Shown: positions 36,935 to 63,791 of the stretch, piece after piece | Position numbering within the stretch: the stretch's first letter is position 1 | Layout of the letters: every line of letters begins with the position of its first letter | Assembly (NCBI RefSeq): GCF_030813495.1 | Contig: NZ_JAUSUI010000011.1 | Coordinates: forward strand, 62,001-126,000 | Length of the DNA stretch: 64,000 bases | DNA from: Ancylobacter polymorphus | GTDB lineage: Bacteria; Pseudomonadota; Alphaproteobacteria; Rhizobiales; Xanthobacteraceae | Direction of reading: 5' to 3' | The notes under the pieces: generated by a model | Databases searched by the model: none | The model's input: the letters and a program-made list of their open reading frames with translations, nothing else | What the model was told of the DNA's origin: nothing | Translations under genes and position numbers: made by a program

Positions 36935-39900
36935 TCAGGTGAAGGCGATCAGCGTGTCGAGATCGTCCTGGCTCAGGGCGAGCCCGGCGAAGTCGCTCGG
37001 CGAATAGCGCCGGGCGGACTGGGCCGCCACCACCCGGCAGGCCTCGGCCTCGGCGCGCACGGCGTCGAGCAGGCGCTCGATGGTCGCGGCGTCATGGCCG
37101 GCGCCGAATTCGCAGCGCAGCACGAGCGCACCGCCTTCCTGCCAGCAATTGAAGGCGAGGCGGTGCGGACGGGCCGCTTGCGCCGCCCGCTCGCGCCCCG
37201 CGCCGAGCCGCACAAGCGCCAGGCCGGCATGGCCGAAACGGCTGATATCGCCGAGGAAGTTAAACGACACTTGCGGCCGCGACCCGGTGAGCGGCGGGGT
37301 GGCGGCGCGCAGCAGGCCATAGCCCATGGCCCGGCCGGCGGCCGCGCGCGCGCGTTCCTTCACCGCCAGCAGCCAGGCCGGCAGGTCGCCCGTCTCCGCC
37401 GGCAGTGCCACGGGATAACGGGTGGTGAACCAGCCAATGGTGCGCGACAGGTCGATGGCGCCATCGCCCGTGTCGCGGCCATGGCCTTCCAGCTCCAGTT
37501 GCAGCGCACCGCCGGTCCAGGCGATGAGCGGGCGGGCGATGAGGGCGAGCGCACTCTCCTGCGGCTGGTGGCCGAAACGCTCGGCAAGATCGGCGAGCAG
37601 CGGCTGCGACAACGCCGCCTCCAGCCGCAGATCGCGGGTGCGGGCGCTGCCCTCCACATCCGGCGCGGCGGGATGGTCGAGCGGCACGGCGGTGGGCGCG
37701 AGCGCCACCGATTGCCAATAGGGCCGGTCGGCCTCGAAGGCGGCACCGGCCCCGGCCTGGTGGCGGCACCACCACGACCAGGCGGTGGGCGGCGCCAGCA
37801 CCGGCTGCGGAGGATCGGACAGCGCCCTGGCGAGATCGTCGGCGAGGATCGCCCAGGACACCATGTCGAAGACGAGGTGATGCACCGCCACGACAAGGCG
37901 CAGAACCGCGCCAGCCTCGATCATGCCGGCGGCGAGCGGGCGCCCGGCCAGCGGGTCGATCGTCGCCACAAGACGGTCGGCCATGCGGTCTTCGCGCGGG
38001 GAGACATCCTGGCCGACGGCCACCTTCTCGCGCAGCAGAGCCGGCAGGCCCGGCGCATCCACCACCTGCTGCAGCGGCGGCGCCCCTTCCTGCAGCCGAA
38101 TCCGCAGCCCGTCATGACGGGCAACGGAAGCGGCCAGCGCCGCCTCCACCGCTGCGGGCGCGGTGCCGGGGGGCAGATCGAATACGGCGGTGAGCGCCCA
38201 GTGCCGGCGGTCGGGCATGGCGAGCCCCATGAACCAGTTCTGGATCGGGGTCAGCGGCACCGGCTCGGCGACCGGCCCGCGGGCCTCCACCGTGTCCGCA
38301 GCGGCCGGCTTCATCAGCGCCGCCAGGGCGCGCGGGGTCGGCGCGGTGAAAATCTGCGCCGGGGAGAGCAGCCACCCCGCCGCCCGCGCCTTGCCGGCGA
38401 GCTGGATCGCCATGATGGAATCGCCGCCGAGAGCGAAGAAATCATCGTCCGGGCCAAGGCTGGCCGCCGTGCCGAGCGCGGCGAAAAGTTCGCGCCACAG
38501 CGCAAGGACCGTGGCGAGCGGATCGCCCGTGCCGGAAGCCTCGGCAACGATGGCGGCGTCGCCGGCCATGGGCGCGGCGAACAGCGCGCGCAGCGCCGTA
38601 CGGTCCAACTTGCCATTGACGGTGAGCGGCAGCGCCTCGACGAGAATGAGGCGCGAGAGGCGCTGCGCCTCTGGCAGCTTGTCCTTGAGCTGGGCGTCGA
38701 GACGCGGCGCGTCCTGCCCCGGCGCCACCGCCGCGCCGACGAGGCGCACAGTGCCGTCGTCCTCGCGCAGCGCCAGCACCGCCGCGTCGCGCACGCCGGC
38801 GCAGGCGCGCAGCTGCGCCGCGACGCCGTTGGGATCGACGCGGTGACCACGCACCTTCACCATGTCGTCCTTGCGGCCGAGGAAGCGAGTGAGCCCATCG
38901 GCGTCACGGCTGCCGAGATCGCCGGTGAGATAGGCACGCGTGCCGTCATCGAGGCGAATGAAACCGGTCGCGGCCTCGCCGGCCGGCATCGGCTCCGCCT
39001 CGGCTTCGCCGACATAGCCAAGTGCCACACCCGCCCCGCTCACCCGGATTTCCCCGGTCTCGCCGGCGGGCAGCACCGCGCCCTCGGCGTCGACAATGTC
39101 GATCTGCACCCCGTCGAGCGCATAGCCCACGGGCACGCGGTCCGGCGCCTGCGCCCCGGCGGCCAGCGTCGGCGTGACCTCCACCATGGTGCAGCCTATG
39201 GTGGTTTCGGTCGGGCCGTAATGGTTGAACAGGCGCAGCTCCGGCCGCAGCGCCCTCAGTTTTTCGACGAGGCCGAAGGTCAGCACATCGCCGCCGCACA
39301 CCAGCGCCCGGCGGGGTAGAAGCGCGGCGGCTTCCGGATGCGCCATGAGTGCGGCGAGATGGGTGGGGACGATCTTGAGCACATCCGCCGGGTGCCGCGT
39401 CATCCAGTCGATGAAGGCGGCGGGGTCGCGGGCGGTCGCCGCGTCCAGCACGTTGAGCGTGCCGCCGGAGGCCACGGCGCCGATCACGCTGGTATAGCCG
39501 AGATCGGCAGCGAAGGAGGTGGCGATGGCGAAGACCTGCGGGCCGGAAAGGTCCAGCCGGCGCAGCAGCGCCCGCGCATAGGCATCGAGCCCGCCGCAGG
39601 ACACGCGCACGCCCTTTGGCCGGCCGGTGGAGCCGGACGTGAACAGGACATAGGCGAGATCGTCGGCAGCGCGTTCCGCATGCGGCGGGGTCTCACCCGG
39701 CTGCGGGTCGCGGTTCCAGCCCAGCACCGGCACGGCGACGGGTTCGCCGGCGGTCGCGGCATCGGCCACCACCACCCGCGCGCCGCACGCCGCCAGCAGC
39801 GTGGCGCGGTAGGTGGCGGGATAGTCGGGATCGAGCGGGACGAAGGCCGCGCCGAGATGGCTCGCCGCCGCCATCGCCACCAGCGGGCCAGCGCCGCGCG

Positions 39901-42900
39901 CGAGGCAGAAGGCGACCCGGTCGCCACGCTCGACGCCCTGTGCCGCCAGACGGGCGGCGAGATCGCCGCTGGACCGTGCAAGCTCCGCCCAGCTCAGCGT
40001 GCCGTCGCGGTCGACCACCGCAGGCGCGTCAGGCGTCGTGGCGGCCCAATGCGCGACATGATCGGCGAGGCTGGTGGGCAAGGGCGCGGATTCGGGCGGC
40101 GCCGGGACCACCGGCGCCTCCGGCTCGGCCGGCGCCGTGCCGACCGCCTCCAGCAAGGTACGGTAGCGGGCGACCCAGGCTTCGACGCGGGCGGCGTCGA
40201 ACAGGTCGGTGTTGAAATTGGCTTCGATCGCGAGGCCTTCCTCGCTGGATTCGAGGTTCCAGTTGAGGTCCCAGCGCACGCGGCCATGGGCGTTAGCGCG
40301 CGGTGTCGGGGCCAGGCCGCCGAAGGGGGCAAGCGGCTCCACTCTGTCGAGATTGAAGGACACGCTCGCCAGCGGCGGGCGGGACGGGTCGCGCCGCACG
40401 CCACTGGCCTTGACGATGGCGGAGAGCGGATAGGCGGGATAGGCCATGGCCTGCGCCATGGCGGCACGGGTAGCGGCGAGCGCATCGCCCTTGAGCCCCT
40501 CAAGGCGCACCGGCACGGTGGAGATGCAATAGCCGGTCAGGCCCGGCTCGCCCACCAGCGGCTGGCCCGCGGCGAAGATCGCCACGACGAGATCGTCCGC
40601 GCCGGAGAGCTCCGCCAGCAACTGTCCATAGGCGGCGAGGCACAGGGTGAACAGCGAGCAGTCGAGCGCCCGCGCCCGCGCGGCGAGTTCGGCGGCGAAG
40701 GCGGGCGGCAGCAGCGCACGCACCGTGCCGCCTTCATAGGTTTGGAGCGGCGGGCGCGGCCGGTCTGTGGGGAGCGCCAGCGCCGCCGGCGGCTGGGCGA
40801 ACACGCTTTGCCAATGCGCCGCGGCTTCCGCATCGGCTGCGGCGTCGCGGGCGAAGCCGGCGAAGCGCTCATAGGCGGCCGGGGCCGGCAGCGCGGGCTC
40901 GGTGCCGGCAAGGCGGGCGGTGTAGAGCTGGCCGAGTTCGTTGGCCAGCACCTGCAGAGACCAGCCATCGGTAACGATATGCGGCTGGACCAGCACCAGC
41001 GCTGTCTGCGTGCCGCCGCTCAGCAGCGCCACGCGCAGCATGCCGGCGCGCGACAGGTCGAAGGGCCGCGCAGCCATCTCCCGCACGAAGCAGTCCAGCT
41101 CCGCCGCGTCGGCGAACGCGGCCTGTTCCAGCGCCACGCGGGCCTCCGGCTCGATGACCGCCATGGCGCCATCGTTCTCGAAGCGCATGCGCAGGCTGTC
41201 ATGGCGGGCGACAAGATCGGCCAGCGCCGCGCTCAGCGCCGCCACGTCGAGCGCGCCGGGTAGGCGCAGCACCAGCGACTGGTTATAGGCCGCCGCACTT
41301 TCCGGGCTGAAGGCGGCGAGCGTCCACAGCGCCTGCTGGCCCGGCGCGGTGGCGAAGCGGCGGGGCACCGCCGAAGGCGGCGGCAGCGCCGCGCCGCCCA
41401 TGAGGCCGGCAGTGGCGAGGGCGCGGGCACTCTCCCGCACCGCGCGGGCGACGTGGGCGAGGTCGTCCTCGCTATGGGCGGTGGAAAGGAAGCAGGTGCG
41501 CCCCTCCCAGACATAGACGCCGCGCGAAATGAGCTGGCTATAGAACAGGTCGCTGGCGCCGGTGAAACGCAGCACGGAGGAGAAGTGCTCCACGCGCAGC
41601 GGGCTGCCGTCTTCCTCCAGCGCGGCGTTCAGCGTGGCGCACAGCGCCTGCGTGCGGGCGTTCAGCCGCTCCTGCAGCGCCGGGCCGGACGCGTCGAGAT
41701 GGCCGAGCATCGCCGTGGCCGCCGCCATGGCGAGCGGGTTCTTGTTGAAAGTGCCGGCAAAGAAGGTGCGCTCGGCCTTGGGGCCGCCGGCGCCGTCCAG
41801 CGGCCAGACGCCGCCGTCGATGCCGTCGAGAAAGGCACTGCGGCCGGAGACGACGCCGATGGGCAGGCCGCCGCCGACGATCTTGCCATAGGTGACGAGA
41901 TCGGCCCGCACCCCCGCCCAGGCCTGCGCCCCGCCGGCGGCGACGCGGAAGCCGAGCAGCACTTCGTCGAAGATCAGCGCCGCACCGGCGCGGGCGGTGA
42001 AGCCGCGCAGCCAGTGCAGGAAATCGCGCGGCTGCAGGCCCGGGCGGCGGCTCTGCACCGGCTCGACAATAACCGCCGCCAGCCGGTCGCCCAGCGCTTC
42101 CAGCGCCATCTGGCTGCCTTCGGGGTCGGCATAGTCCAGCACCACCACATCCGCCAGCATGCCCGGCGGGGTGCCGCTGGCGAGCGGCAGGCTGGCGCCA
42201 TCGCTGCCGGAACGGGCCAGCGTGCCGTCGAAATGGCCGTGATAGGAGCCGGCGAACATCGCCACCAGCGAACGGCCGGTAGCATGGCGGGCAAGGCGCA
42301 GCGCGGTCATCACCGCTTCCGTGCCGGTGTTGCAGAACACCGACCGCTCATTGCCGGTGAGCTTCGCGATCAGCGCGGCGGCCTCGCCGGCCTTTTCCGC
42401 CTGCGGGCCGAGAAACAGCCCCTGCTCGGCGATCTGGCGCTGGATGGCCTCCACCACCATGGGCGGGCTGTGGCCGAGCAGTTGGACGCCGAAACCCATG
42501 GTGAGGTCGACATAATCATTGCCGTCGGCATCGACGACATGACTGCCCTGCCCCTTCACGCCAATGATCGGGTAGAGCAGCGATTTGGTCTCCGGCCGGA
42601 ATCCCGCCACCGCCCGGCTGTCGGCCAGCACCGGCCCGAAGGCTTCGCGCTGGTGGCGGGAGGCGCCGTGGCTCGCGCCGTAGCGGGCGGCGAAATCGGC
42701 GATGAAACCCGCCGCCTCCGGGCTCAGCGCCTCGGTCGGTGTGGCAGGCGGGGGGCTGGCAGGCGGGAGAGTGGGGCTGGACACGCGAGCCTCCGTCGCC
42801 GCCGAGAGGGCGGCCATGGTCGGAATGGCGGAAAGCGGGGCGATGGCGGCAGCTGCGGCGGCGGGGTCGGGGGCTTTCGCCTCCACCTCGCGCAGCACCC

Positions 42901-45880
42901 GCTCCAGCAGCGCCCGCGGCGTGGTGAGGGTTGTGAACAATTCGCGCCGGGGAATCGCGACTTTCCACCGCCGCTCAAGCGTGGAAAGCGCCTCGGCGAG
43001 GGCAAGGGAATCCACCCCAAGGGTGAAGAAGCCGGCATCGCCCGCCAGTGCCGCTTCGCTCAGCTGCAGGCTGCGCCGCAGGCTGGTGGCGAGGGCGGCG
43101 CGGATGTCCTCGCGGTTCAAGGCCGGTGCGGCGGGCACGGGAACCGCAGCAGGCATCGCGGAGACCGGCGGAAGGAGCGCAGCCGCGTGCCGGCGCGGTG
43201 CCTCGACCCAGTGGCGGTCGCGCGCGAAGGGATAGGGTGGCAGGCGCGCCGGGACGGCGCCGCTCGCCGGCCATGTCACGTCGAGGCCGGCGACGAACAG
43301 GCGGCACAGCGCCAGCGCCAGCGTTTCGCCCGCCGCCCGGTTGCGGCGCATGGTGGGGATGAAGCGGGTGTCGCGGCCCTCAAAACCCGCGGCGCGCTGG
43401 GCGAAGCCAACCAGCGTCGCGGCCGGGCCGATCTCCACCACGACATTCACGCCCTCGCGCGCCAGGGTGTCGAGCCCGGCGCCGAAGCGCACGGGCTGGC
43501 GGATCTGCCGGCCCCAATAGGCCGGATCGCACAGATCGACCGAAAGATCGCCGCTGACGTTGGAGACGACCGGCAGGCGCGGCGCGGCGAGCATCGCCGC
43601 GCGCACCCGCTGCTCGAAGGGCTCGACGGCGGCGTCCATCAGGTGCGAATGAAAAGCGTGGCTGGTGACGATGCGCTGGCTGCGGATGCCTTCCGCATCC
43701 AGCGCGGCGAGCACTTGCGCGATCGCCTCGCCCGGCCCGGACAGCACGACTTCCTCCGGCGCGTTCAGCGCCGCGATATCGAGGCGCCCCTCGACAGCGT
43801 GCAGCGCCGCTTCGAGCTGTTCCAGCGGCGCGAACACCGCCACCATCTCGCCGCCCGGCGGCAATGCCCCCATCAACGCACCGCGCGCGGCCACAATGTC
43901 GAGCGCCGCCTCGAAAGGCACCACGCCGGCGAGGCAGGCGGCCGACCATTCGCCGAGACTGTGGCCGGCGACGAGGTCCGGCGTGATGCCGCAGGCGGCG
44001 AGCCGTTCGGCCAGCGCCATTTCCAGCGCGAACAGAACCGGCTGCACCTCGGCGGTGTCGGTCAGCGGCGGGCCTTCCCTGTCGAACATCCGCGCGGCGA
44101 GGTCGCGCCCCATCTGCAGCCCAGCCGCGTCGATCCGCGCGCGAAAGGCCGGGTCGGCGGCGTAGAGATCCGCCGCCATGCCCGGCCACTGGCTGCCCTG
44201 CCCGGAAAACAGGAAGGCAACCTTCGGGATATCCGGCAGAGCCTGCCCGACGGCGCCGACCTGCGGCGCCTCGCCGGCGGCAATGGCGCGCAGGCCCGCC
44301 AGCGCTTCCTCAGGACTGCGGGCGAGACAGGCGGCGCGATGGGCGAAGCGTCCGCGCCCCCGGTTCAGCGCCGCAGCGATGCCGGCGAGCGGAATCTGCG
44401 GGTCGGCGGCGAGATGATCGGCAAGCCCCGCCGCCACGCGGCGCAGGGCCTCGGCATCGGGGGCGGAAAAGGCGAGGACGGCAGGCAGCGGCGGGGCGAC
44501 CGGCACCTCCGGCGCGGGCGGGGCTTCTTCCAGAATGAGATGGGCGTTGGTGCCGGAAAAGCCGAAGCTGCTCACCCCGGCGCGGCGCGGCGCGCCGGCG
44601 GGCCATTGCATCGCTTCGGCGACGACGCGAACGGGAAGTTCGTCCCAGGCGATGCGCGGATTGGGCTGGGTCTGGTGCAGCGTCGCCGGCAGCCGGCCGG
44701 CTTCCAGCGCCAGCACCATCTTGATCAGCCCGGCAATGCCGGCGGCGGCTTCCAGATGGCCGATATTGGTCTTTACCGAGCCCAGCAGCAGCGGCTCGGT
44801 GCGCAAAAGGCCATAGGCGGCGGCGAGCGCCTGCACTTCGATGGGATCGCCCAGCGGCGTGCCGGTGCCATGACATTCCACCGCCTGCACATCGGCCGCT
44901 GACAGGCCGGCATCGGCGAGCGCGCTCGCAATCACCGCCCGCTGCGCCGCTCCATTGGGCGCGGTGAGCGCGCTGGAATGGCCGTCATGATTGAGCGCGG
45001 AGCCGCGAATAACCGCACGGATGGCATCGCCGTCGCGCAGCGCATCGGCGAGGCGCTTCAGCACCACCAGCCCGCCGCCCTCGCCGCGCACATAGCCATC
45101 GGCGGCGGCGTCGAAGGTGCGGCAGGCATGGCGGGGGCCGAGCATGCCGGCGGCGGCGAGGGCGGCGGTCACATCGGCGTCGAGCGTGAGATTCACCCCG
45201 CCCGCCAAAGCGAGGTCGCATTCGGCGCTGCGCAGCGCACGGCAGGCGGCGTGCACGGCGACCAGCGAGGAAGAACAGGCGGTGTCGAGCACCAGCGCCG
45301 GGCCGGTGACATCGAGCCAGTGGGCGATGCGGCCGGCGGCGATGGAGCCGGCATTGCCGAGAATGGCGGCGGGGGAGAGCGAACCGGTTGCCTGAAAGCG
45401 GGACTCGTACTCATTGGCGCCGAGGCCGAGAAACACGCCGGTGGCGCGGGAACGCCGCGCCGCATCCGCATAGCCGGCGTCTTCCAGCGCCTGCCAGGCC
45501 AGCATCAGCGCGAGGCGGTGCTGCGGGTCCATGGCGTCGGCTTCGAGCGGGCGCAGGCCGAAGAAACCGGGGTCGAAGGTCTCCACCCCCTCGACATAGC
45601 CGCCGGGCGGCAGGCCGTCGCGCTCCGGCCGGTCGGCGGGAGCGGGGCGCACAGCGTCGCGGCCCTCGAACAGCAGACGGCCATAAGCCAGCGCCGAGTC
45701 GACATCGGCGAAGCGGGCGGCGAGGCCGATGATAGCCACGGGCGCACGGGCGCGGGCGGTCTCGGCCCGCAGCGCGTCGATGCGCCCTTCCAGCGCCAGC
45801 ATCAGATCGGTGACCTGTTCGGGGTGCAGCCGGCTCAGCCGGGCGAGCAGGCCCGCGCGCCGCTCCTCACTGCTCGCCAC
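36935..45880 (-). CDS. Hybrid PKS-aminotransferase-NRPS: KS-AT-ACP-AMT-C-A-T-E
   Basis: The protein has 2981 residues from the GTG at 45880, which has GGGAGG upstream; a TTG at 45895 is an alternative. Domains by position: KS about 45-465 (Cys202, His337, His375); AT about 545-870 (Ser641 in GHSLGEW; HAFH at 741, malonyl type); ACP with Ser958; class III aminotransferase about 1060-1490 (PLP Lys1333 in TYGKIVGGGLPIG); C about 1505-1935 (His1634 in PHIVTDG); A about 1955-2440; T with Ser2488 in GGDSI; E about 2545-2970 (PIQNWF, His2668 in HHLVFDMVSW). There is no ketoreductase. This is mycosubtilin/iturin-like logic: malonate extension, transamination of the beta-ketone, then condensation. By eye the A-domain code reads DLTKVGHIGK, the known Asp code. 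The gene overlaps the FAAL-ACP gene by 14 bases. Confidence 0.93.
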   Translation of the reverse strand: MASSEERRAGLLARLSRLHPEQVTDLMLALEGRIDALRAETARARAPVAIIGLAARFADVDSALAYGRLLFEGRDAVRPAPADRPERDGLPPGGYVEGVETFDPGFFGLRPLEADAMDPQHRLALMLAWQALEDAGYADAARRSRATGVFLGLGANEYESRFQATGSLSPAAILGNAGSIAAGRIAHWLDVTGPALVLDTACSSSLVAVHAACRALRSAECDLALAGGVNLTLDADVTAALAAAGMLGPRHACRTFDAAADGYVRGEGGGLVVLKRLADALRDGDAIRAVIRGSALNHDGHSSALTAPNGAAQRAVIASALADAGLSAADVQAVECHGTGTPLGDPIEVQALAAAYGLLRTEPLLLGSVKTNIGHLEAAAGIAGLIKMVLALEAGRLPATLHQTQPNPRIAWDELPVRVVAEAMQWPAGAPRRAGVSSFGFSGTNAHLILEEAPPAPEVPVAPPLPAVLAFSAPDAEALRRVAAGLADHLAADPQIPLAGIAAALNRGRGRFAHRAACLARSPEEALAGLRAIAAGEAPQVGAVGQALPDIPKVAFLFSGQGSQWPGMAADLYAADPAFRARIDAAGLQMGRDLAARMFDREGPPLTDTAEVQPVLFALEMALAERLAACGITPDLVAGHSLGEWSAACLAGVVPFEAALDIVAARGALMGALPPGGEMVAVFAPLEQLEAALHAVEGRLDIAALNAPEEVVLSGPGEAIAQVLAALDAEGIRSQRIVTSHAFHSHLMDAAVEPFEQRVRAAMLAAPRLPVVSNVSGDLSVDLCDPAYWGRQIRQPVRFGAGLDTLAREGVNVVVEIGPAATLVGFAQRAAGFEGRDTRFIPTMRRNRAAGETLALALCRLFVAGLDVTWPASGAVPARLPPYPFARDRHWVEAPRRHAAALLPPVSAMPAAVPVPAAPALNREDIRAALATSLRRSLQLSEAALAGDAGFFTLGVDSLALAEALSTLERRWKVAIPRRELFTTLTTPRALLERVLREVEAKAPDPAAAAAAIAPLSAIPTMAALSAATEARVSSPTLPPASPPPATPTEALSPEAAGFIADFAARYGASHGASRHQREAFGPVLADSRAVAGFRPETKSLLYPIIGVKGQGSHVVDADGNDYVDLTMGFGVQLLGHSPPMVVEAIQRQIAEQGLFLGPQAEKAGEAAALIAKLTGNERSVFCNTGTEAVMTALRLARHATGRSLVAMFAGSYHGHFDGTLARSGSDGASLPLASGTPPGMLADVVVLDYADPEGSQMALEALGDRLAAVIVEPVQSRRPGLQPRDFLHWLRGFTARAGAALIFDEVLLGFRVAAGGAQAWAGVRADLVTYGKIVGGGLPIGVVSGRSAFLDGIDGGVWPLDGAGGPKAERTFFAGTFNKNPLAMAAATAMLGHLDASGPALQERLNARTQALCATLNAALEEDGSPLRVEHFSSVLRFTGASDLFYSQLISRGVYVWEGRTCFLSTAHSEDDLAHVARAVRESARALATAGLMGGAALPPPSAVPRRFATAPGQQALWTLAAFSPESAAAYNQSLVLRLPGALDVAALSAALADLVARHDSLRMRFENDGAMAVIEPEARVALEQAAFADAAELDCFVREMAARPFDLSRAGMLRVALLSGGTQTALVLVQPHIVTDGWSLQVLANELGQLYTARLAGTEPALPAPAAYERFAGFARDAAADAEAAAHWQSVFAQPPAALALPTDRPRPPLQTYEGGTVRALLPPAFAAELAARARALDCSLFTLCLAAYGQLLAELSGADDLVVAIFAAGQPLVGEPGLTGYCISTVPVRLEGLKGDALAATRAAMAQAMAYPAYPLSAIVKASGVRRDPSRPPLASVSFNLDRVEPLAPFGGLAPTPRANAHGRVRWDLNWNLESSEEGLAIEANFNTDLFDAARVEAWVARYRTLLEAVGTAPAEPEAPVVPAPPESAPLPTSLADHVAHWAATTPDAPAVVDRDGTLSWAELARSSGDLAARLAAQGVERGDRVAFCLARGAGPLVAMAAASHLGAAFVPLDPDYPATYRATLLAACGARVVVADAATAGEPVAVPVLGWNRDPQPGETPPHAERAADDLAYVLFTSGSTGRPKGVRVSCGGLDAYARALLRRLDLSGPQVFAIATSFAADLGYTSVIGAVASGGTLNVLDAATARDPAAFIDWMTRHPADVLKIVPTHLAALMAHPEAAALLPRRALVCGGDVLTFGLVEKLRALRPELRLFNHYGPTETTIGCTMVEVTPTLAAGAQAPDRVPVGYALDGVQIDIVDAEGAVLPAGETGEIRVSGAGVALGYVGEAEAEPMPAGEAATGFIRLDDGTRAYLTGDLGSRDADGLTRFLGRKDDMVKVRGHRVDPNGVAAQLRACAGVRDAAVLALREDDGTVRLVGAAVAPGQDAPRLDAQLKDKLPEAQRLSRLILVEALPLTVNGKLDRTALRALFAAPMAGDAAIVAEASGTGDPLATVLALWRELFAALGTAASLGPDDDFFALGGDSIMAIQLAGKARAAGWLLSPAQIFTAPTPRALAALMKPAAADTVEARGPVAEPVPLTPIQNWFMGLAMPDRRHWALTAVFDLPPGTAPAAVEAALAASVARHDGLRIRLQEGAPPLQQVVDAPGLPALLREKVAVGQDVSPREDRMADRLVATIDPLAGRPLAAGMIEAGAVLRLVVAVHHLVFDMVSWAILADDLARALSDPPQPVLAPPTAWSWWCRHQAGAGAAFEADRPYWQSVALAPTAVPLDHPAAPDVEGSARTRDLRLEAALSQPLLADLAERFGHQPQESALALIARPLIAWTGGALQLELEGHGRDTGDGAIDLSRTIGWFTTRYPVALPAETGDLPAWLLAVKERARAAAGRAMGYGLLRAATPPLTGSRPQVSFNFLGDISRFGHAGLALVRLGAGRERAAQAARPHRLAFNCWQEGGALVLRCEFGAGHDAATIERLLDAVRAEAEACRVVAAQSARRYSPSDFAGLALSQDDLDTLIAFT

Positions 45881-51673: not shown

Positions 51674-51709
51674 GACAAAATTCGCCAATGGACAGCGCCC
51701 ACCGATGTG

Positions 51710-51733: not shown

Positions 51734-51837
51734 GGGGACCATCCCTTCGCCGAACGCGTCTCGCGCGGCGCCGTCGCCGGTCGGAGCGACAGCGTCCGGG
51801 GCCAGCCCGTGCGCCGCAGCCGAATCCAGGAGGATCC

Positions 51838-53441: not shown

Positions 53442-53447
53442 AGACGT

Positions 53448-53674: not shown

Positions 53675-56600
53675 GTGGCCCGCGGTCCCATTGAAGACAT
53701 TTACGGCCTGACCGATCTTCAGCGCGCCATGCTGATACGCTGCGCGAGCTATCCCGATCAGCCCCTCTTCATGGGCCAGTGGTGGGCCCTCCTCGCCGGC
53801 CCGCTCGATGAAGATGGCTTCGCGGCCGCGTGGGCCGCTGTCATCCAGCGCCACAGCGTGCTGCGCTCGGGCTTTCACTGGGAACTCAAGGGCGATCCCG
53901 CCCAGGTGGTGGTCGCCGCGCCCAGCTTCGCGGTCGAACGGCTGGACTGGAGCGCCCGCGCGGACTGGCGCGCCGCGCTCGATGCGCTGCTGCAGGAAGA
54001 CCGCACCCAGCCCTTCGATGTGCGCCGTCCGCCGCTGATGCGGGTGCGCCTCGCCAGGCTCGCGGAGGAGGGCGCGGGGTCGCGCCACCTTCTGGTGTGG
54101 ACGCGCCATCACCTCGCCGTCGATGGCTGGTCGCTTGGCGAGATTCTGGACGAGGTTCTCACCCTTTATCGCGGCGGCACGGTGCCTGCCGCGCTACCTT
54201 TCCGCCGCTATGTCGAGTGGTGGCAGGGCCGCGACGCCGCCGCCGGGCGGGCACATTGGGACGCCATGCTTGCCGGCTATCAGCCGGGGGCGACCCCGCG
54301 CGTTTCGACCGCCGCCGCGCCCCGCATCGGCGAGGTCATGCGGAATCTCTCCCCCGCCGTCGCCGACCGCCTCGCCGCCCTCGCGCGCAGCGAGCGTCTG
54401 ACGCTGAGCACGCTGGTCGAAGGCGCCTGGGCGCTGGTGCTCGCCCGCGCGGACGGAACCGACGATGTGGTGATGGGCTGCATCGAAACGGTGCGCCCGC
54501 CCGAACTGCTGGGAGACCAAACCCATCATCTGGTGGGGCCGCAGGTCGGCGTGCTGCCTAGCCGGCTGCGCCGCGACGCGACACCGCTGCGCCATTGGCT
54601 GGCTGAGCTGCAGCAGGCGCGGGCACGGGGACGCGACGCCGGGCCGCTGGGGCTGGATACGATGCGTGACCTGCTCGGCCTGCCGAGCGACGCGCTGCCG
54701 CTGCGCAGCCTGATCGCGGTGCAGACCTATCCGCTGGCGCTGGCGCCCGCCTTCCGCGCCGCCGGGCTTGAGCTGCTGGCGAGCGGCGACGTCACCCTGC
54801 CGGACCTGCCGCTCAATCTGATGGTGGAGATCGGCGAGAGCTTTGAACTGCGGCTGATGGTCGACGAGCTTCATGTGCCGCTGCCGCAGGCCCGGCAGCT
54901 TCTCGCCATGCTCGCCACCGCGCTGGAGCGCCTGCCTTTCCATCTCGACGCGCCCGCCAGCGCCCTCGACGTGATGCCGGAAGCGCTGCTCGCCGAGATC
55001 GCCGCCGCCCTGACGGGCAAGCCCCTGCCCCGGCCGGCAGGGACGGTGGTCGACCTGATCCTGGCGCAGATGCGCGCCCGTCCCGAAGCGCCCGCGCTCG
55101 TCGCCGAGGGCCGCTCGCGCTCCTATGGCGAACTCGGCGCAGAGGCGATCGACCTTGCCGGCCGGCTGGTAGCGGCCGGGGTAAAGCCGGGCGCGCGGGT
55201 CGCGGTCATGCTCGATCAGGGGCCCGAAGCGGTGGCCGCCATTCTCGGCATTCTATTCGCCGGCGCCGCCTATGTGCCGCTCGACCCCGAGGCGCCGGCC
55301 GAGCGCCGGACGATGATCCTCGCCAGCGCCGGCGTCGCCGCCCTCGTCACACGTCACGACCGTGCCGGCGCGGTGCCGGGTCTGCCGGTGCTGACGGTCG
55401 AGGACGCTTCCCCGGAACCCGCCGATCTCGACGCGGTGACGCGGCCGGCGGCAGAGGACGAGGCCTATGTCATCTTCACCTCCGGCTCCACCGGCCAGCC
55501 GAAGGGCGTGAGCGTCGGCCATGACAATCTGCGCACCCATGTAGCCGCCAGCGCGGCGGAAAATGCCGACCTGCCGATCGGCCGCTTCCTGCTGACCTTC
55601 CCGCTGTTCTTCGACGGCTCCGTCACCGGCCTGTTCTGCACGCTCTGCGAAGGCGGCACGCTGGTGCTGCCCGATGCCGGCGCGGCGCGCGACGCTGACC
55701 GGCTGGTCGCGCTCATCCGCGGCGCCGGCGTGACTCATGTGTGCCTCACCCCTTCTTTCTGGGGCATTCTGCTGGAGGCCGCCGGCGCAGACGGCCTGCC
55801 CGCCCTGCGCATGGCCAAGGTGGCGGCCGAGCCCTGCCCGCCCGCGCTGGTCGCCGCCCATGCCGCCCGCGTGCCCCAAGCGGTGCTGTGCAACGAGTAC
55901 GGTCCCACCGAGGCGACCGTGTGGGTCTGTGTCGAACGCTGCCGGCCGGAGACAACAGGCGCCAGCGTCGCCATCGGCCACCCCATCCCCGGCACGGTTC
56001 TGCATGTGGTGGATGGCGAAGACCGCCCCTGCCCTTACGGCACCATTGGCGAACTTGTCATCTCCGGCCCGTCCGTGGCCCGCTTCTATATCGGCGCGGA
56101 GCCGGGCGTGAGCCTGCGTACGTCGTTGGCCGGCACCTCGGCCCCTGCCTATCGCACCGGCGACCGTGTGTCGCTCGCCAGCGATGGCCGGTTGTACTTT
56201 CATGGCCGCCGGGACCGGCAGGTGAAGATAGCCGGCTACAGGATTGAGCCGGGCGAGATCGAAGCGGTGCTGCTGGCGCAGGCCGGCATCCGCGAGGCCG
56301 CGCTTGTGGTCGAGGAGGGAGACGGCCGGCCCGCCCGCCTCGTCGCCCATCTCGCGCCCGACACCGGCCCGGATGAGGCGGAACTGCGCCGGGTCCTGGC
56401 CGCGCGGCTGCCGGCCTACATGATCCCGCAGGCCTTCCTGCGGCATAAGCAGCTTCCGCGCACCGCGAATGGCAAGGTGGATACCGCCGCCCTTCCCCGC
56501 GCCCCGCTCGCCGCGACTTCTGGCGGCGCGGAGCCCCCGCAGGGGCCGCTGGAAACCGCCCTCGCCACCGTGTGGGCGGAGCTGCTCGGCCTTCCCACGG

Positions 56601-56824
56601 TGGGCCGAAACGCCCATTTCTTCGCGCTTGGCGGCAGTTCGCTGCTGGCGATGCAGATGATCGCCCGCCTGCGCCGGGAGCTGGCGCTGCAAGCCACGCT
56701 GGCGGACCTGTTCGAAGCGCCGGAACTCGCCGCGCTGGCGCGGCGGCTCGGAGCCGCGCCGACCGAGGACCCCGCCCCGGCCCCCGTGGCGCGTGCCCGC
56801 GCCCGGGTGGAGTTGCCTTCATGA
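53675..56824 (+). CDS. Nonribosomal peptide synthetase module C-A-T
   Basis: The protein has 1049 residues from the GTG at 53675 (GAAGG upstream); the ATG at 53627 would add 16 residues. Domains: C about 1-435 (His146 in HHLAVDGWS), A about 450-930 (FTSGSTGQPKG near 600, Asp647 in FFDGSV, NGKVDT), and T with Ser989 in GGSSL. No E or TE domain. The C domain receives an upstream chain ending in the epimerised residue of the PKS/NRPS protein, so a DCL-type domain is expected. By eye the A-domain pocket reads DGTCKAEVWK, which matches no code I can assign. The next NRPS starts 28 bases after its stop. Confidence 0.92.
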   Translation: MARGPIEDIYGLTDLQRAMLIRCASYPDQPLFMGQWWALLAGPLDEDGFAAAWAAVIQRHSVLRSGFHWELKGDPAQVVVAAPSFAVERLDWSARADWRAALDALLQEDRTQPFDVRRPPLMRVRLARLAEEGAGSRHLLVWTRHHLAVDGWSLGEILDEVLTLYRGGTVPAALPFRRYVEWWQGRDAAAGRAHWDAMLAGYQPGATPRVSTAAAPRIGEVMRNLSPAVADRLAALARSERLTLSTLVEGAWALVLARADGTDDVVMGCIETVRPPELLGDQTHHLVGPQVGVLPSRLRRDATPLRHWLAELQQARARGRDAGPLGLDTMRDLLGLPSDALPLRSLIAVQTYPLALAPAFRAAGLELLASGDVTLPDLPLNLMVEIGESFELRLMVDELHVPLPQARQLLAMLATALERLPFHLDAPASALDVMPEALLAEIAAALTGKPLPRPAGTVVDLILAQMRARPEAPALVAEGRSRSYGELGAEAIDLAGRLVAAGVKPGARVAVMLDQGPEAVAAILGILFAGAAYVPLDPEAPAERRTMILASAGVAALVTRHDRAGAVPGLPVLTVEDASPEPADLDAVTRPAAEDEAYVIFTSGSTGQPKGVSVGHDNLRTHVAASAAENADLPIGRFLLTFPLFFDGSVTGLFCTLCEGGTLVLPDAGAARDADRLVALIRGAGVTHVCLTPSFWGILLEAAGADGLPALRMAKVAAEPCPPALVAAHAARVPQAVLCNEYGPTEATVWVCVERCRPETTGASVAIGHPIPGTVLHVVDGEDRPCPYGTIGELVISGPSVARFYIGAEPGVSLRTSLAGTSAPAYRTGDRVSLASDGRLYFHGRRDRQVKIAGYRIEPGEIEAVLLAQAGIREAALVVEEGDGRPARLVAHLAPDTGPDEAELRRVLAARLPAYMIPQAFLRHKQLPRTANGKVDTAALPRAPLAATSGGAEPPQGPLETALATVWAELLGLPTVGRNAHFFALGGSSLLAMQMIARLRRELALQATLADLFEAPELAALARRLGAAPTEDPAPAPVARARARVELPS

Positions 56825-56852
56825 GGGCGCGACCGGCGCCGGGGCCGCGCTG

Positions 56853-59800: not shown

Positions 59801-62800
59801 CGCGCGCATCTGGGCCGATCTGCTGACGACGGCCGCCTTCGGGGTGCGCGACAATTTCTTCCATGTCGGCGGCGATTCCATCCTCACCATCCGCCTCGTC
59901 GCCCGGGCCTATGAGGCCGGCCTCGACCTCGAACTGAAGGATGTGTTCGACCAGCCGACCATAGAAGGTCTCGCCGCCATCGCCCTGAGGCGTCAGAGGG
60001 CGGTGCAGGCGCGCAGCCATGGCGCCCGTTATGGGGCGGAACTGATTGCCGCCGCCTGCGATTCCCGCAATCCCTGCCGCTTTGTCAGCGTCTCGGTGCC
60101 GGCCAGCGTGTCCACCGTCGATCTCGGCTATGCGATCGAGCGCCTCGCCGAGCGGCACGATGCGCTGCGCCTCGTACGGGTGGAGGACGCCACCGGGCGC
60201 TCGCTCGCCATATCCGATTTCCTCCCCGCCGTGCCCGTGCGCTTCGTCGATGTGCCCGCGACGACGCTCGACGATCTCGACCGCTGGATCACCGATAACA
60301 GCGCCCGGCTGGCGCGCGGCATCGACCTGGCGGCGGGGGTGACCATTGCCGCCACGCTGGTGACAGCGCAGGCGCCGGCGGCCGGAAGGGCCACCGTCGT
60401 GCTCGCACTGCATGAGGCCGTGGCGGACGACCGGGCACTGCTGCTGCTGGCGACCGAGCTTGAAGCCGCGCTGGCCGCCGGGCCGGACAGCGCCCTCCCG
60501 CCGGCGCCGCCTTTCGGCTTCTCGCACTGGCTCGCCTGGCTCGCCGACCATGCCGCAAGCCCACAGGTGCGCGCGGCGGCGATGGCGTGCGAGGCCGCCG
60601 AGGCCGAAGCGCCGCCCGATGCGTTCGCCGCCAGCTCCCCCACCCTCGCCGCCGCGCAGCTGCTGTTGGAGGCCGGCACCTCGCGCCTGCTGCTGGAGGA
60701 ATTGCCCGGCCGGCTCGGCGTGTCGCTGGTCGATGCGTTGCTGGTCGCGCTCGGCGAGACGCTGGACGGGGCGCCCGCCGTCGAGCTGGTGGATGGCCGC
60801 CGCGCCCTGCCGCCGGGCACGCCGGAAGCGGCGGGCCTCGTCGGCAATCTCGACGTGCTGCTGCCCTTGCAGGCCTGCGCATCTGGGGCTCCGCTTGGCG
60901 CGCGGCTGCGCGCGGCCAAGACGGGGCGCCAGCGCGCCGAGCCGCTGGGCCTCGCCTTCAGCGCGATCCGCACCGCCTTCCACTTCGCCCCGCCGGCGCT
61001 CTATGTGGCTTTGCTGCCGGCCGCCGCGCCGGATCCGGCGATCCGCCTGCACCCGCATGCGCCGAACGTCCCGGATACGGTCCGCGCCGGACTGACGGTG
61101 CGGGTGAGCGGCGGGCGCCTCGCGCTCGGCTGGTCGGAGGCCGCGCCCGTCGAGACGGCGGAGGCTCGTCTGGCGGCCATCGCTGAGAGCCTGCGCGCCA
61201 TTGCCGGCTGGACGCAAGGCCAGGCCGCGCCCTTGCTCACCCCCGGAGATTTCCCGCTTGCCGGGCTCGATACGGCGACGCTGGACGCTCTGGCCGGAGC
61301 GTGCCCCGATGTCGAGGATATCTACCCGCTCTCGCCCATGCAGGAGGCGATGCTGCTGCATTCGCTCAGCCGGCAGGGATCGGCGGTGAATTTCGAGCAG
61401 AGCTGCATGCGCTTTACGGGCGCGCTCGACAGCGCGGCGCTGCGCAAGGCATGGGCACTGGTGTTCGAGCGCCACGCGGTGCTGCGCAGCGTGTTTCGTT
61501 GGCGTGGACTGGAGCGGCCGCTGCAGCTCGTCCGCCGCAATGCCCCACCGCCGGTGGAGCTGGAAATCTGGCCGGGCTTCAGCGCGGAACGGCTGGAACA
61601 GCGGCTGGCGCAGGATCGCGCGGCAGGCTTCGACCTGGAGGCCGGCCCGCTCGCCCGGTTGATCCTGATTCGGGTGAACGCCGGCGAGGCCTATCTCATC
61701 GCCTCCTTCCATCACATGCTGGCCGATGGCTGGTGCCTCGCCCAGCTGGAGCGGGAGGCCCGCGCCGCCTATGAGGCGCTGCGGCGCGGCATGCCGCCGG
61801 CATTGCCGCCGCCGGCCCGCTTCCGCGACTTCATCGCCTGGACCGCGACGCTGGAGCGCGAGGGCCTGCGCGCGGCCTTCGTGCCGCTTCTCGCCGGTGC
61901 GCCCGCGCAGCCGGCGCTGCATCCGGCCGGCAATGGCGCGGCAAGCTATGTCACCCTCCGCCGCCCGCTGCCGGTGGAGCCGAGCAAGGCGCTGAGCGAT
62001 CTCTCGCGCCGGCGCGGCCTCACGATCGCCGCCCTCGCGCATCTCGCCTGGGGCCTGTGGACCGCCGCCCGGCGCGGGGTGGCGGACACGGTTTTCTGCA
62101 CCACCGTTTCCGGCCGGCCGCCGCAGGTGCCGGGCGTCGAGCAGATGGTCGGCCTGTTCATCAACAACCTGCCGGTACGGCTGCGCTTTTCGCCTTCCAG
62201 CCCGCTGCTGGCTCTGGCGCAGGAGATGCAGCGCCAGATCGCCGCTTTGCAATCGCAGGCGCAGCTGTCGCTGCGGGAGGTCGCCGAGGCCGCCGGGGTT
62301 GCCGATCGCGCCTCCTGCCTGTTCGACACGTTGCTGGTGGTGGAGAACATGCCGGCGGGCTCGGACGCCTGGACCGGCGCCGGCGGGCTGCGGGTGGAGA
62401 GCGTGCACAATGCGCTGAAATCCGCCTACAGCCTCACCGGCGTGGTGGTGCCGGGCGAGCGGATCGGGCTTTCCCTCGTGCTGCCGGACCTCGATGGCAC
62501 CGCCACCATTCGAGGCGAGGCGATGATCGAGGAATTCGCCGCCGTCTTCGCCGCTCTGCCCGGCCTCATCGACGGGACGGTCGCCACCGTGCCGCTGCCG
62601 GCTGCCGCTCCCCTGCCGCCTGCGGAAGAAAGCCCGGACATCAACGACGCGTCGGCGCCGGACGCTGCGCCACTCGCACCGCCCGCCGACGCTACCGAGG
62701 CAGCGGTGCTGGACGTGCTCGCCGCGTTGCTCGGCCCCCGCCTGGCGCGCTCCGGGGACGTGCTGGCGGCCGGTCTCACCTCGCTCGGCCTGGCCACAGC

Positions 62801-63791
62801 GGCGGCCCGGCTGTCGGAACGGCTTGCCCGCCCCGTGCCGGTCACGGCGCTGATCGAGCATCGCAGCGCCGCCGCGCTGGCGCGGGCGCTCTCCCGGCAG
62901 AAGGCCGGGGCGACGGCGTGGGATGCGGTGGTGCCGCTTACCGGCGGGGAGGACCCGCCTTTCATCTGTGCCCACCCCATCGCCGGCGATGTCAGCGCCT
63001 TCCTCGATCTGGCCCGGGCCTTTCCGGCGGATATTCCCTTCTGGGCCCTGCAGGCGCCGGGGCTGGAGAAGGGCCAGGAACCGCCCAACGGCGTCGCGGC
63101 GCTGGCCGCCGCCAATCTCGACGCGCTGGCCCGAAGGGGCGTCGCCGCCCCACGCTTCCTCGGCGGCTACTCATTCGGCGGCATCGTCGCCTATGAGATG
63201 GCCTGCCAGCTTCACGCGCGCGGCACGCCGCCCGAACGGCTCGTCATCATCGACACGCCCGCCCCGCTCGGCAGCCGCTCGGTGCTGCCGGAGGATCCCG
63301 AACGGGCGCAGGCACAATGGCTGCTGCGGATGGCGCAGGTCCGCGCCCGCCACCATGAGGCCCCGCTCGCCCTCAGCATGGAGGAATTGCTGGCGCGAAC
63401 CGGAGAGGCGCGCTTCGCCCTCGCCTGCGCGCGGATGCGGCAAGCCGGGTTGATCGCGCCGGAAGCCGACACCGCCTGGCTGCGCCGCGCCTATCGCGCC
63501 AGCCGCGCTCTCTATGACGCCTTCCTGACCTATGCCCCTCCCGAGAACGCTCCGCGGAACCTGAAGCTGTGCCTTGTGCGCGCTTCCCATCCCGCTGGCG
63601 GTGATCTGAGCGAGGCCGATCGGGCCGTTCTCGCCGCACCTGATATGGGCTGGTCCCGGCTTAATGATCACGTGCTCGGCGTGCGCGAGGTTCCAGGCGA
63701 TCATGTGTCCATGCTCTCCGGCGCGGCGGCGGCCCAAACGGCTGGGGCCATCGCCTCTTTTCTCGACATGTCCTCCGCTGTGCGCAGGTAG
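56853..63791 (+). CDS. NRPS C-A-T-(degenerate E)-C-T-TE
   Basis: The 2312-residue protein contains: C1 about 1-435 (His140 in HHIISDG); A about 470-965 (TSGSTGTPKAVSV near 616); T1 with Ser1009 in GGDSI; a C/E-superfamily region about 1040-1465 whose expected HHxxxDG reads LHEAVADD around His1187; C2 about 1490-1910 (His1621 in HHMLADGW); T2 with Ser1977 in GLTSLGL; and a type I thioesterase with Ser2107 (GYSFGG), probable Asp2134 and His2284 (GDHVSML). The A pocket by eye reads DALWIGGTFK, one residue from the known Val code DAFWIGGTFK. The final C-T-TE has no A domain. The TE would release the product by hydrolysis or cyclisation. Confidence 0.93.
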   Translation: MASGYVAGLSFGQRQIRMAELLRPGRTLFAMPLLVRIEGRIDSDVLRAALAMVARRHDSLRASFPLVNGAPVQAVADEVPLPLAVIATGEAFDSPAFDAAVAAQAQAMVNEPFDLSAGPLARFSLVRAAEGGVLVAVLHHIISDGASLTILRRDLVAAYDAALASRPEARPPLPLQFPDVADWEQERFGAPGPALDAAMAAWRARLAGAPARLDLPYDRAQGEGGSLRSAQAELHVPGDVAATLAALARREGASEFSLYLALLFVVLRRWSGLDDLVVTIPAARRDRPDLADLIGLLVDTLPIRATITDEARFPALLGEVQNSLRAALAQRDLPFERIVEASGVERRGEAAPFLQVLFGAAEPPAPALTALDGTRFAILPEQLDQEAKAELSVVYAAAPDGLRLWCRYDAMLFDAATIEAVLGWFGRLAQALAVQPDQPVLEIPLLSASEGAAQVAGFNATAVAYEREDSAIALFFRDAARLPDAIAVEEDGLRLSYGALADRVRRLAGVLAAQGVGAGEVVLLVLPVSGALIEAQLAVLALGAAYAPIDPTYPAEQRDVRARQVGARHAVSLDPSQATEGCATLGWAALREAAEAAAPHPEVGLSAQSPAYVMFTSGSTGTPKAVSVPHRAIVRLARAQGLAAPGLRAAVYSNPAFDASTLEIWVPLLNGGTLLPVDRTVVMDPRALRLFLHEGRISLLWITAGLFQQIAALDPAAFAGPRLVITGGDVVNPVAARAVLAAGRAKGLSLFNGYGPTENTTFSTLFDIADLGVDELTIPIGQPISNSTAYVLDPAGRPLPPGLVGELWVGGDGVALGYHGDADLTAARFRPDPFATGPAARMYRTGDLARWRADGSIVFLGRADRQVKVRGFRIELGEIEAVLALHPGVAGAAVLAPRRASGERDLVAYVAPKVGLALTPAELRAHLEARLPRQMLPQAYLLLDRLPLNANGKVDTRALPAVEIAETPAEAPVEPRTPEERILARIWADLLTTAAFGVRDNFFHVGGDSILTIRLVARAYEAGLDLELKDVFDQPTIEGLAAIALRRQRAVQARSHGARYGAELIAAACDSRNPCRFVSVSVPASVSTVDLGYAIERLAERHDALRLVRVEDATGRSLAISDFLPAVPVRFVDVPATTLDDLDRWITDNSARLARGIDLAAGVTIAATLVTAQAPAAGRATVVLALHEAVADDRALLLLATELEAALAAGPDSALPPAPPFGFSHWLAWLADHAASPQVRAAAMACEAAEAEAPPDAFAASSPTLAAAQLLLEAGTSRLLLEELPGRLGVSLVDALLVALGETLDGAPAVELVDGRRALPPGTPEAAGLVGNLDVLLPLQACASGAPLGARLRAAKTGRQRAEPLGLAFSAIRTAFHFAPPALYVALLPAAAPDPAIRLHPHAPNVPDTVRAGLTVRVSGGRLALGWSEAAPVETAEARLAAIAESLRAIAGWTQGQAAPLLTPGDFPLAGLDTATLDALAGACPDVEDIYPLSPMQEAMLLHSLSRQGSAVNFEQSCMRFTGALDSAALRKAWALVFERHAVLRSVFRWRGLERPLQLVRRNAPPPVELEIWPGFSAERLEQRLAQDRAAGFDLEAGPLARLILIRVNAGEAYLIASFHHMLADGWCLAQLEREARAAYEALRRGMPPALPPPARFRDFIAWTATLEREGLRAAFVPLLAGAPAQPALHPAGNGAASYVTLRRPLPVEPSKALSDLSRRRGLTIAALAHLAWGLWTAARRGVADTVFCTTVSGRPPQVPGVEQMVGLFINNLPVRLRFSPSSPLLALAQEMQRQIAALQSQAQLSLREVAEAAGVADRASCLFDTLLVVENMPAGSDAWTGAGGLRVESVHNALKSAYSLTGVVVPGERIGLSLVLPDLDGTATIRGEAMIEEFAAVFAALPGLIDGTVATVPLPAAAPLPPAEESPDINDASAPDAAPLAPPADATEAAVLDVLAALLGPRLARSGDVLAAGLTSLGLATAAARLSERLARPVPVTALIEHRSAAALARALSRQKAGATAWDAVVPLTGGEDPPFICAHPIAGDVSAFLDLARAFPADIPFWALQAPGLEKGQEPPNGVAALAAANLDALARRGVAAPRFLGGYSFGGIVAYEMACQLHARGTPPERLVIIDTPAPLGSRSVLPEDPERAQAQWLLRMAQVRARHHEAPLALSMEELLARTGEARFALACARMRQAGLIAPEADTAWLRRAYRASRALYDAFLTYAPPENAPRNLKLCLVRASHPAGGDLSEADRAVLAAPDMGWSRLNDHVLGVREVPGDHVSMLSGAAAAQTAGAIASFLDMSSAVRR

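What the first reader, a model, noticed from the sequence alone, without database searches (positions are those of the whole stretch)
36935..63791. A beta-amino lipopeptide assembly line of iturin-like logic in an alphaproteobacterium
FAAL-ACP loading, one KS-AT-ACP extension without ketoreductase, an embedded class III aminotransferase and NRPS modules imply a beta-amino fatty acid joined to a short peptide. The closest known logic is mycosubtilin/iturin in Bacillus, where the malonyltransferase acts in trans; here an AT with the malonyl-type HAFH motif is built in. The predicted order is lipid, Asp (epimerised), unknown, Val and perhaps one more residue. I know of no described alphaproteobacterial product that fits.
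Basis: partly seen in the sequence, partly recalled or inferred. Interest (0 to 1): 0.87.

Follow-up and report, generated by a model that had tools for sequence, protein, structure and literature searches.

The report
Conserved beta-amino lipopeptide assembly line
A relative of the bacterium Ancylobacter carries genes that should build a small fatty peptide with a nitrogen on its fatty tail; the chemistry of the start is already known from other bacteria, but this gene set looks like an undescribed family found in two bacterial classes, and its finishing end is oddly built.

Summary
In detail: FAAL-ACP; KS-AT-ACP-AMT-C-A-PCP-E; C-A-PCP; C-A-PCP-E*-C-PCP-TE, with an exporter, a type II thioesterase and an Fe/2OG dioxygenase between, and an RND pump and PPTase just outside the window. 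The AMT is of mycosubtilin MycA type (best PDB match 6kfm, 49% identity, PLP lysine kept). A domains read Asp, unassigned, Val; the Asp module has an intact E. Predicted product: beta-aminoacyl-D-Asp-X-Val(-?). (1) A built-in AT is not special: laxaphycin and microginin lines have it, and 52 of 79 related loci fuse KS/AT, AMT and C/A. (2) It is not one alphaproteobacterium: the seven core genes recur together in 17 genomes (Ancylobacter-type, Xanthobacter, Rhodopseudomonas and nine Alcaligenaceae). What is new lies at the finishing end: the last module lacks an A domain in every copy seen; the domain before it is an epimerase relic that lost both catalytic residues in 21 of 21 rows; and a dioxygenase of this type occurs in just the genomes with this AMT in the two groups searched, one broken remnant aside. 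I found no described product; MIBiG could not be searched. New variant of a known kind.

The parts
45867..48011 (-). FAAL-ACP loading protein (FAAL about 46296-47885, ACP 45993-46193)
   Evidence: Pfam AMP-binding, PP-binding, DIP2-like domain; NCBIfam fatty-acid-AMP ligase model 366 bits, below its curated cut-off of 775; ACP position
44672..45742 (-). KS domain
   Evidence: active-site Cys in 16/16 rows
43280..44215 (-). AT domain with motifs GHSLGE and HAFH
   Evidence: Ser and His in 16/16 rows; that HAFH means malonyl is recalled
42896..43096 (-). ACP after AT; no reductive domain found between AT and AMT
   Evidence: Ser in 16/16 rows
41396..42628 (-). Class III aminotransferase domain (AMT), MycA type
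   Evidence: (6kfm E 6.3e-123), 49.3% identity, PLP Lys in 16/16 rows
40106..41362 (-). C domain joining the beta-aminoacyl chain to Asp
   Evidence: PHxxxDG with catalytic His in 16/16 rows
38777..39994 (-). A domain 1, code DLTKVGHIGK, Asp
   Evidence: PMC12283262 names DLTKVGHVGK for Asp/Asn
38315..38512 (-). PCP of the Asp module
36971..38233 (-). Epimerisation domain with intact HHxxxD and EGHGR
48008..50785 (-). ABC exporter with C-terminal cNMP-binding domain
   Evidence: orthologue in 17/17 complete clusters
50795..51742 (-). Type II thioesterase, GNSFG serine motif
51730..52704 (+). PhyH-type Fe(II)/2-oxoglutarate dioxygenase, HxD...H triad; likely start ATG 51838
53684..54955 (+). 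C domain of P0006 (follows the active E)
55121..56302 (+). A domain 2, code DGTCKAEVWK, substrate unassigned
56558..56749 (+). PCP of P0006
56871..58202 (+). C domain 1 of P0007
58338..59534 (+). A domain 3, code DALWIGGTFK, Val
   Evidence: PMC12283262
59799..59978 (+). PCP1 of P0007
60024..61277 (+). E*: epimerase relic, catalytic His and Glu positions replaced
61305..62597 (+). C domain 2 of P0007, intact; no A domain follows
62703..62891 (+). PCP2 of P0007 (no cognate A domain)
62958..63752 (+). Terminal thioesterase
   Evidence: GYSFGG Ser in 20/20 readable rows

Best explanation
This is a complete hybrid assembly line for a short beta-amino lipopeptide. Steps: FAAL adenylates a free fatty acid and loads the ACP; KS-AT-ACP adds one malonyl unit and leaves a beta-ketoacyl-ACP, as there is no KR; the AMT turns the keto group into a beta-amine; C joins the chain to Asp and E makes it D-Asp; P0006 adds residue X; P0007 adds Val; a final C-PCP-TE module without its own A domain either adds one more residue loaded from elsewhere or only hands the chain on, and TE releases it as a ring closed on the beta-amine or as a linear acid. 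The PhyH dioxygenase oxidises a residue or the tail at an unknown stage; ABC and RND systems export the product and the linked PPTase primes the carriers. Shown: domain order, active-site residues, A codes, conservation. Inferred: fatty acid, beta-amine, D-Asp, Val, export. Open: X, the last residue, ring or not, what PhyH does, biological role.
For: Domains; FAAL models; AMT of MycA type; codes with the GrsA control read as DAWTIAAICK; active sites kept in 16/16, or 20 to 21 of the readable, rows; the same seven core genes in 17 genomes of two classes; PPTase and RND pump beside it in 8 of 8 alphaproteobacterial copies; only NRPS seen in the genome.
Against: No product, expression or MIBiG comparison. 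The last module lacks A in all copies seen, and no A-PCP protein was found elsewhere in this genome, so colinearity fails at the end. The A2 code has no identical match in the one held paper found with its ending (that paper's supplementary tables were not open to me). PhyH substrate unknown. E* looks dead, so the Val stereochemistry that the next C domain meets is unclear. RND pump and PPTase are absent from the stretches fetched for the nine Alcaligenaceae copies.
Confidence: 0.82

Rival explanations
1. A microginin-like linear lipopeptide: three or four residues, free N-terminal beta-amine and free acid, perhaps a peptidase inhibitor; TE hydrolyses and does not cyclise.
For: Size and start logic match microginin lines: FAAL, ACP, KS-AT-ACP with AMT on a PKS/NRPS hybrid, two to six NRPS modules, TE, ABC transporter (PMC12250027, passages; PMC2739229, passages). 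Rings of so few residues are less usual (general knowledge).
Against: Iturin and laxaphycin lines with the same start end in ring closure (passages). The microginin start unit is alpha-hydroxylated and no monooxygenase domain is fused here. D-Asp does not appear among the microginin residues in the passages read.
Confidence: 0.4
2. A lipopeptide siderophore like fabrubactin: FAAL, PKS and aminotransferase start, with Asp hydroxylated by the dioxygenase to a metal-binding beta-hydroxy-Asp.
For: An alphaproteobacterial cluster with PKS, class III aminotransferase and NRPS genes beside a ferric reductase and TonB receptor exists on Allorhizobium pAtS4e. Asp A domains can accept beta-hydroxy-Asp (PMC12283262, passage). 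An Fe/2OG oxygenase is present.
Against: No TonB receptor, ferric reductase or other iron gene among the ORFs scanned (6, 20 flank ORFs; the window left of 7689 and small ORFs were not scanned). The dioxygenase is of PhyH type, nearest MysH; that siderophore Asp hydroxylases are TauD type is recalled.
Confidence: 0.1
3. A decaying, non-functional cluster, as the dead E domain and missing A domain might suggest.
For: E* lost both catalytic residues; one same-genus genome (G027) holds only a broken remnant.
Against: E* and the A-less module look the same in 21 of 21 rows from two classes while C2, PCP2 and TE stay intact; in the remnant G027 the AT serine, the ACP and the C histidine are lost, which is what decay looks like.
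Confidence: 0.05

Closest known systems
Iturin/mycosubtilin synthetases (MycA, Bacillus)
   Same: FAAL, PKS, AMT of the same type (49% identity to the MycA AMT), then NRPS; beta-amino lipopeptide logic
   Different: AT in cis here; FAAL-ACP is a separate gene in the window and most copies (fused to the PKS in G036 and G040); three A domains, not seven; A-less end; PhyH; window AMT does not group with MycA
Laxaphycin/scytocyclamide start (LxaA, LxaB, LxaE, cyanobacteria)
   Same: FAAL-ACP, KS, AT-ACP-AMT in the line, no reduction: plain beta-amino acyl unit (PMC7524897, passages)
   Different: KS and AT-ACP-AMT on separate proteins; 11- and 12-residue rings; no PhyH or dead E named in the passages read
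Microginin mic cluster (cyanobacteria)
   Same: FAAL, ACP, KS-AT-ACP plus AMT on a PKS/NRPS hybrid, few NRPS modules, TE, ABC transporter; short product (PMC12250027, passages)
   Different: Alpha-hydroxylated start unit, halogenase, N-methylation, other residues; first ACP is a separate gene
Puwainaphycin PuwC-PuwE (Cylindrospermum)
   Same: FAAL, and a PKS module and aminotransferase fused to an NRPS module in PuwE (PMC4219810, passages)
   Different: Extra methylating and reducing PKS module PuwB, monooxygenase domain beside the aminotransferase
Syringomycin SyrE last module
   Same: Terminal C-T-TE without A domain (PMC8949500, passages); the cluster's SyrB2 is of the PhyH superfamily (recalled)
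   Different: No stand-alone A-T protein found here; HxD triad, so hydroxylase- and not halogenase-type; TEII keeps Ser, no SyrC-like shuttle shown
X domain of glycopeptide NRPS
   Same: Catalytically altered C-superfamily domain: HRxxxDD in X domains (PMC11546977, passage); HExxxDD in the window and HRxxxDD in G043
   Different: E* is epimerase-derived (PDB profile: PvdL and tyrocidine E domains E 9e-39 to 4e-19, X domain 4tx2 E 0.0035); it lies mid-protein before a C domain; its partner would be an Fe/2OG enzyme, not a P450; recruitment untested

Membership tests
Beta-amino lipopeptide synthetases (FAAL/PKS/AMT/NRPS) | FAAL plus ACP loading | tested here: met
Beta-amino lipopeptide synthetases (FAAL/PKS/AMT/NRPS) | Non-reducing PKS module followed by AMT with PLP lysine | tested here: met
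Beta-amino lipopeptide synthetases (FAAL/PKS/AMT/NRPS) | Product carries a beta-amino fatty acid | not testable with these tools
   needs LC-MS/NMR
Iturin family proper | Trans-acting malonyltransferase, no AT in the PKS module | tested here: not met
   AT domain in cis; that iturins use a trans enzyme is as the finding says and recalled
Iturin family proper | Seven-residue peptide ring | tested here: not met
   three A domains and one A-less module; seven residues per PMC4219810 passage
Iturin family proper | AMT groups with MycA | tested here: not met
   window lies in a 23-row Pseudomonadota set (99/98) without MycA; MycA has a long branch and no Bacillota kin in the tree, so its own place is unsure
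Microginin type | Alpha-hydroxy beta-amino start unit | tested here: inconclusive
   no monooxygenase domain in P0001, but the PhyH enzyme could in principle hydroxylate the tail
Syringomycin-type split last module | C-T-TE without A at the end | tested here: met
Syringomycin-type split last module | Stand-alone A-T protein that supplies the residue | tested here: not met
   no A-PCP protein outside the cluster among the matches; a lone 504-aa AMP ligase without PCP exists
X domain | HRxxxDD-like motif in place of HHxxxDG | tested here: met
   H[E/D/R/P]xxxD with catalytic His lost in 21/21 rows; window HEAVADD, exact HRxxxDD only in G043 (HRSIADD)
X domain | Sequence kin of glycopeptide X domains | tested here: not met
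   closest are E domains; X domain 4tx2 E 0.0035
X domain | Binds an oxygenase | not testable with these tools
   needs pull-down or co-structure

The most novel reading that the evidence does not exclude
The dead epimerase (E*) is not a relic but a docking platform: it holds the PhyH dioxygenase at the neighbouring carrier so that the carrier-bound residue is oxidised before the A-less C-PCP-TE module finishes the chain, i.e. an epimerase-derived, independently evolved counterpart of the glycopeptide X domain that recruits a non-heme iron enzyme, combined with a syringomycin-like last module fed by one of the line's own A domains.
Probability: 0.15. Interest if true: 0.7.

Novelty: new variant of a known kind. 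Interest (0 to 1): 0.5.

Why it matters
It points to a beta-amino lipopeptide family shared by Xanthobacteraceae and Alcaligenaceae, groups from which I know few products of this kind, and several bearers are type strains that can be grown (A. aquaticus DSM 101, A. vacuolatus DSM 1277 among the records). The constant dead epimerase, the A-less last module and the tied dioxygenase make a clean test case for how an NRPS finishes a chain when the rule of one A domain per residue fails, and for whether dead C-superfamily domains other than the X domain recruit tailoring enzymes.

Tried and rejected
Halogenase idea: the PhyH superfamily includes SyrB2-type halogenases (recalled), but the triad is HxD...H in 19 of 19 aligned rows, so hydroxylase-type chemistry is expected. 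Kinship of A2 with the Gly A domain of linear gramicidin synthase: the 437-bit hit was the sum of two domains of 210 and 224 bits, so no assignment. A2 by code: the His code DSALIAEVWK (PMC12283262, passage) shares 6 of 10 positions, the Tyr code DGTITAEVAK (recalled) 7 of 10; left unassigned. E* as a member of the X-domain family: rejected by profile. SyrC-like shuttle: the TEII motif has Ser, while a Cys is recalled for SyrC (one search prints 17 rows; 16 show GNSFG or GNSYG, the pattern picked a wrong site for G000, whose GNSFG is visible). A stand-alone A domain shared by the clusters: none stood out among the shared ORF families, but only two ORFs of one unknown family were then scanned. 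Fold of E* from six window paralogues: low confidence (pLDDT 63, pTM 0.52), so the Foldseek list with PvdL and E domains on top (TM-scores 0.13 to 0.4, rmsd about 17) is weak support at best. NCBIfam gave no name for PhyH or TEII. In print: one search listed 15 of 1,437 papers, none with the word Ancylobacter; one search found 4 papers with Ancylobacter and 'biosynthetic gene cluster', of which I saw passages of one.

Full report
What is there. Minus strand: KS-AT-ACP-AMT-C-A-PCP-E (P0001), FAAL-ACP (P0002), an ABC exporter that ends in a cNMP-binding domain (P0003) and a type II thioesterase (P0004). Plus strand: a PhyH dioxygenase (51730-52704), C-A-PCP (P0006) and C-A-PCP-E*-C-PCP-TE (P0007). 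Just beyond the window the same strand goes on with an outer-membrane efflux protein, a membrane fusion protein, an RND permease and a PPTase (window coordinates about 63926-70438). All 6 condensation-domain matches of the genome lie here.

Start unit. The loading protein matches fatty-acid-AMP ligase models, below their curated cut-offs. P0001 shows no KR, DH, ER or MT, so KS-AT-ACP should leave a beta-ketoacyl chain. The AMT finds the MycA AMT structures first (6kfm, 6kfr, 6kfu; E about 1e-123) and aminomutases only at E 1e-57; identity to MycA is 49.3% and the PLP lysine is kept in 16 of 16 rows (window and 15 orthologues).

Peptide. With GrsA as control (DAWTIAAICK recovered), the codes are DLTKVGHIGK, DGTCKAEVWK and DALWIGGTFK. 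The held survey PMC12283262 (passages) names DLTKVGHVGK for Asp/Asn and DALWIGGTFK among the commonest Leu/Ile/Val codes. A2 stays unassigned; read by eye it is DGTCKAEVWK in 8 of 8 alphaproteobacterial rows and DGTI(V/I)(A/G)EVWK in the 9 Alcaligenaceae rows. The E after Asp keeps its His and Glu in 16 of 16 rows. The predicted chain is beta-aminoacyl, D-Asp, X, Val and perhaps one more.

Finishing end. P0007 departs from the rule. Behind the Val carrier lies a C-superfamily domain, E*, closest to epimerisation domains: profile comparison with the line's own E gives E 6e-22 over 387 columns, with its four C domains only 2e-8 to 2e-12, and the best PDB profile hits are PvdL and tyrocidine/gramicidin E domains. 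The catalytic His is replaced by E, R, P or D (9, 6, 5 and 1) and the catalytic Glu position by V, I, L, M or S in 21 of 21 rows (the Glu register rests). Then follow an intact C domain (His in 21 of 21), a PCP (Ser in 20 of 20 readable) and a TE (20 of 20), with no A domain between. In the window that C domain scores best, among the other families of the line, against the C domain that follows the active E (207 bits, next 102), so it looks like a D-accepting type and E* was probably once active. No A-PCP protein was found elsewhere in this genome: the other carrier hits are ORFs of 88 to 126 aa, and the best outside A-like hit is a lone 504-aa AMP ligase (202 bits). The held review PMC8949500 (passages) gives a precedent: syringomycin's SyrE ends in C-T-TE and is fed by SyrB1, with SyrB2 modifying the residue and SyrC carrying it.

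Dioxygenase. The PhyH protein has an HxD...H triad in 19 of 19 aligned rows and is closest to MysH by sequence (E 1.6e-31) and by fold (model pLDDT 77). It tracks the cluster. In the genus it occurs in 6 of 30 genomes, the same six that carry this AMT at 93% or more with the rest of the core, and not in the remnant G027. In the family of G032, 13 of 268 genomes carry the AMT at E <= 1e-140 and the same 13 carry a PhyH of 53-58% identity; 13 further genomes carry only PhyH proteins of at most 42%. Four of those 13 AMT bearers (G564, G623, G643, G644) were not looked at further. One MAG (G041) has two tandem copies.

Spread. The one genome-contig scan confirmed 153 stretches and kept 79 distinct loci. 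Seven core genes (FAAL, PKS-NRPS, ABC, TEII, PhyH, P0006 and P0007 orthologues) occur together in 17 genomes: 8 alphaproteobacterial (this one, five more of its genus, Rhodopseudomonas rhenobacensis, Xanthobacter agilis) and 9 Alcaligenaceae (two Candidimonas, Allopusillimonas, Parapusillimonas, Pollutimonas, Paralcaligenes, Pusillimonas and two strains not named to genus); in G034 the best frame of the P0007 orthologue starts only at about residue 973. RND pump and PPTase accompany 8 of 8 alpha copies and are absent from the stretches fetched for the 9 beta copies (one 24% RND hit apart, G039); a gene with a weak glycosyltransferase-9 match accompanies 7 of 9 beta copies. Four MAGs (G041-G044) hold parts. 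In the order, 2 of 397 genomes drawn evenly, this one included, pass E <= 1e-140. In the genus all seven bearers, the remnant included, have it beside the same DoxX gene. The AMT tree of 81 rows joins the Xanthobacteraceae, Rhodopseudomonas, MAG and Alcaligenaceae rows (100/98) and leaves MycA outside. The patchy spread over two classes suggests transfer; no formal test was made.

Known or new. Of the 79 related loci, 52 fuse KS or AT, AMT and C or A in one ORF, among them Cyanobacteria, Chitinophaga, Pseudoalteromonas and Herpetosiphon; 36 of the 52 also show a FAAL over 300 bits in the DNA held. So the start logic is common. In print, laxaphycin (PMC7524897) and microginin (PMC12250027) use it with an AT in the line, and puwainaphycin PuwE fuses PKS module, aminotransferase and NRPS module (PMC4219810); passages read. 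A cluster with PKS, aminotransferase and NRPS genes beside a TonB receptor is visible on Allorhizobium plasmid pAtS4e, and the FAAL review PMC11837247 (passages) lists fabrubactin, from Agrobacterium fabrum (title seen in a reference list), with a FAAL. I found no paper on this family in the searches; PMC8867984 (passages) names Ancylobacter isolates among strains recovered in a bioactivity screen.

Verdict. Real, intact and conserved; it works like the iturin, laxaphycin and microginin starts, and is no iturin by number of modules and by its AT. The undescribed points are the family itself, the constant dead epimerase, the A-less end and the tied dioxygenase. Interest 0.5: solid for a natural-product specialist, but the core chemistry is known and the product is not.

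Noticed in passing
G027:C1:3699000-3738000 (L107, L108): Decayed remnant of the cluster in a same-genus genome: one open 2908-aa PKS-NRPS ORF with AT Ser to Gly, ACP missing and C histidine lost; FAAL, ABC, TEII, PhyH and the other NRPS genes not found beside it.
   Followed up: partly
G003, G012, G017, G022 (L109-L116): A second, different KS-AT-AMT-C-A line in the same genus (AMT 47-48% identical), with a separate A-type ORF and a C-type ORF and no match to this FAAL.
   Followed up: partly
33264-36922: DUF2282, MbnB/TglH/ChrH, DUF2063 and DoxX genes in a row: looks like a RiPP-type operon directly beside the cluster.
   Followed up: no
14813-17644: Autotransporter with a trypsin-like domain.
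   Followed up: no
L156, G041: Two tandem PhyH genes in a MAG copy of the cluster, 53% and 45% identical to the window's.
   Followed up: no
48008-50785: ABC exporter fused to a C-terminal cyclic-nucleotide-binding domain; orthologues in 17 of 17 complete clusters.
   Followed up: no
L137 (1-1434), L139 (1197-2528): Gene with a weak glycosyltransferase-9 match (over the cut-off in one of two scanned) next to the PKS-NRPS gene in 7 of 9 betaproteobacterial copies and G041; the product may be glycosylated there.
   Followed up: partly
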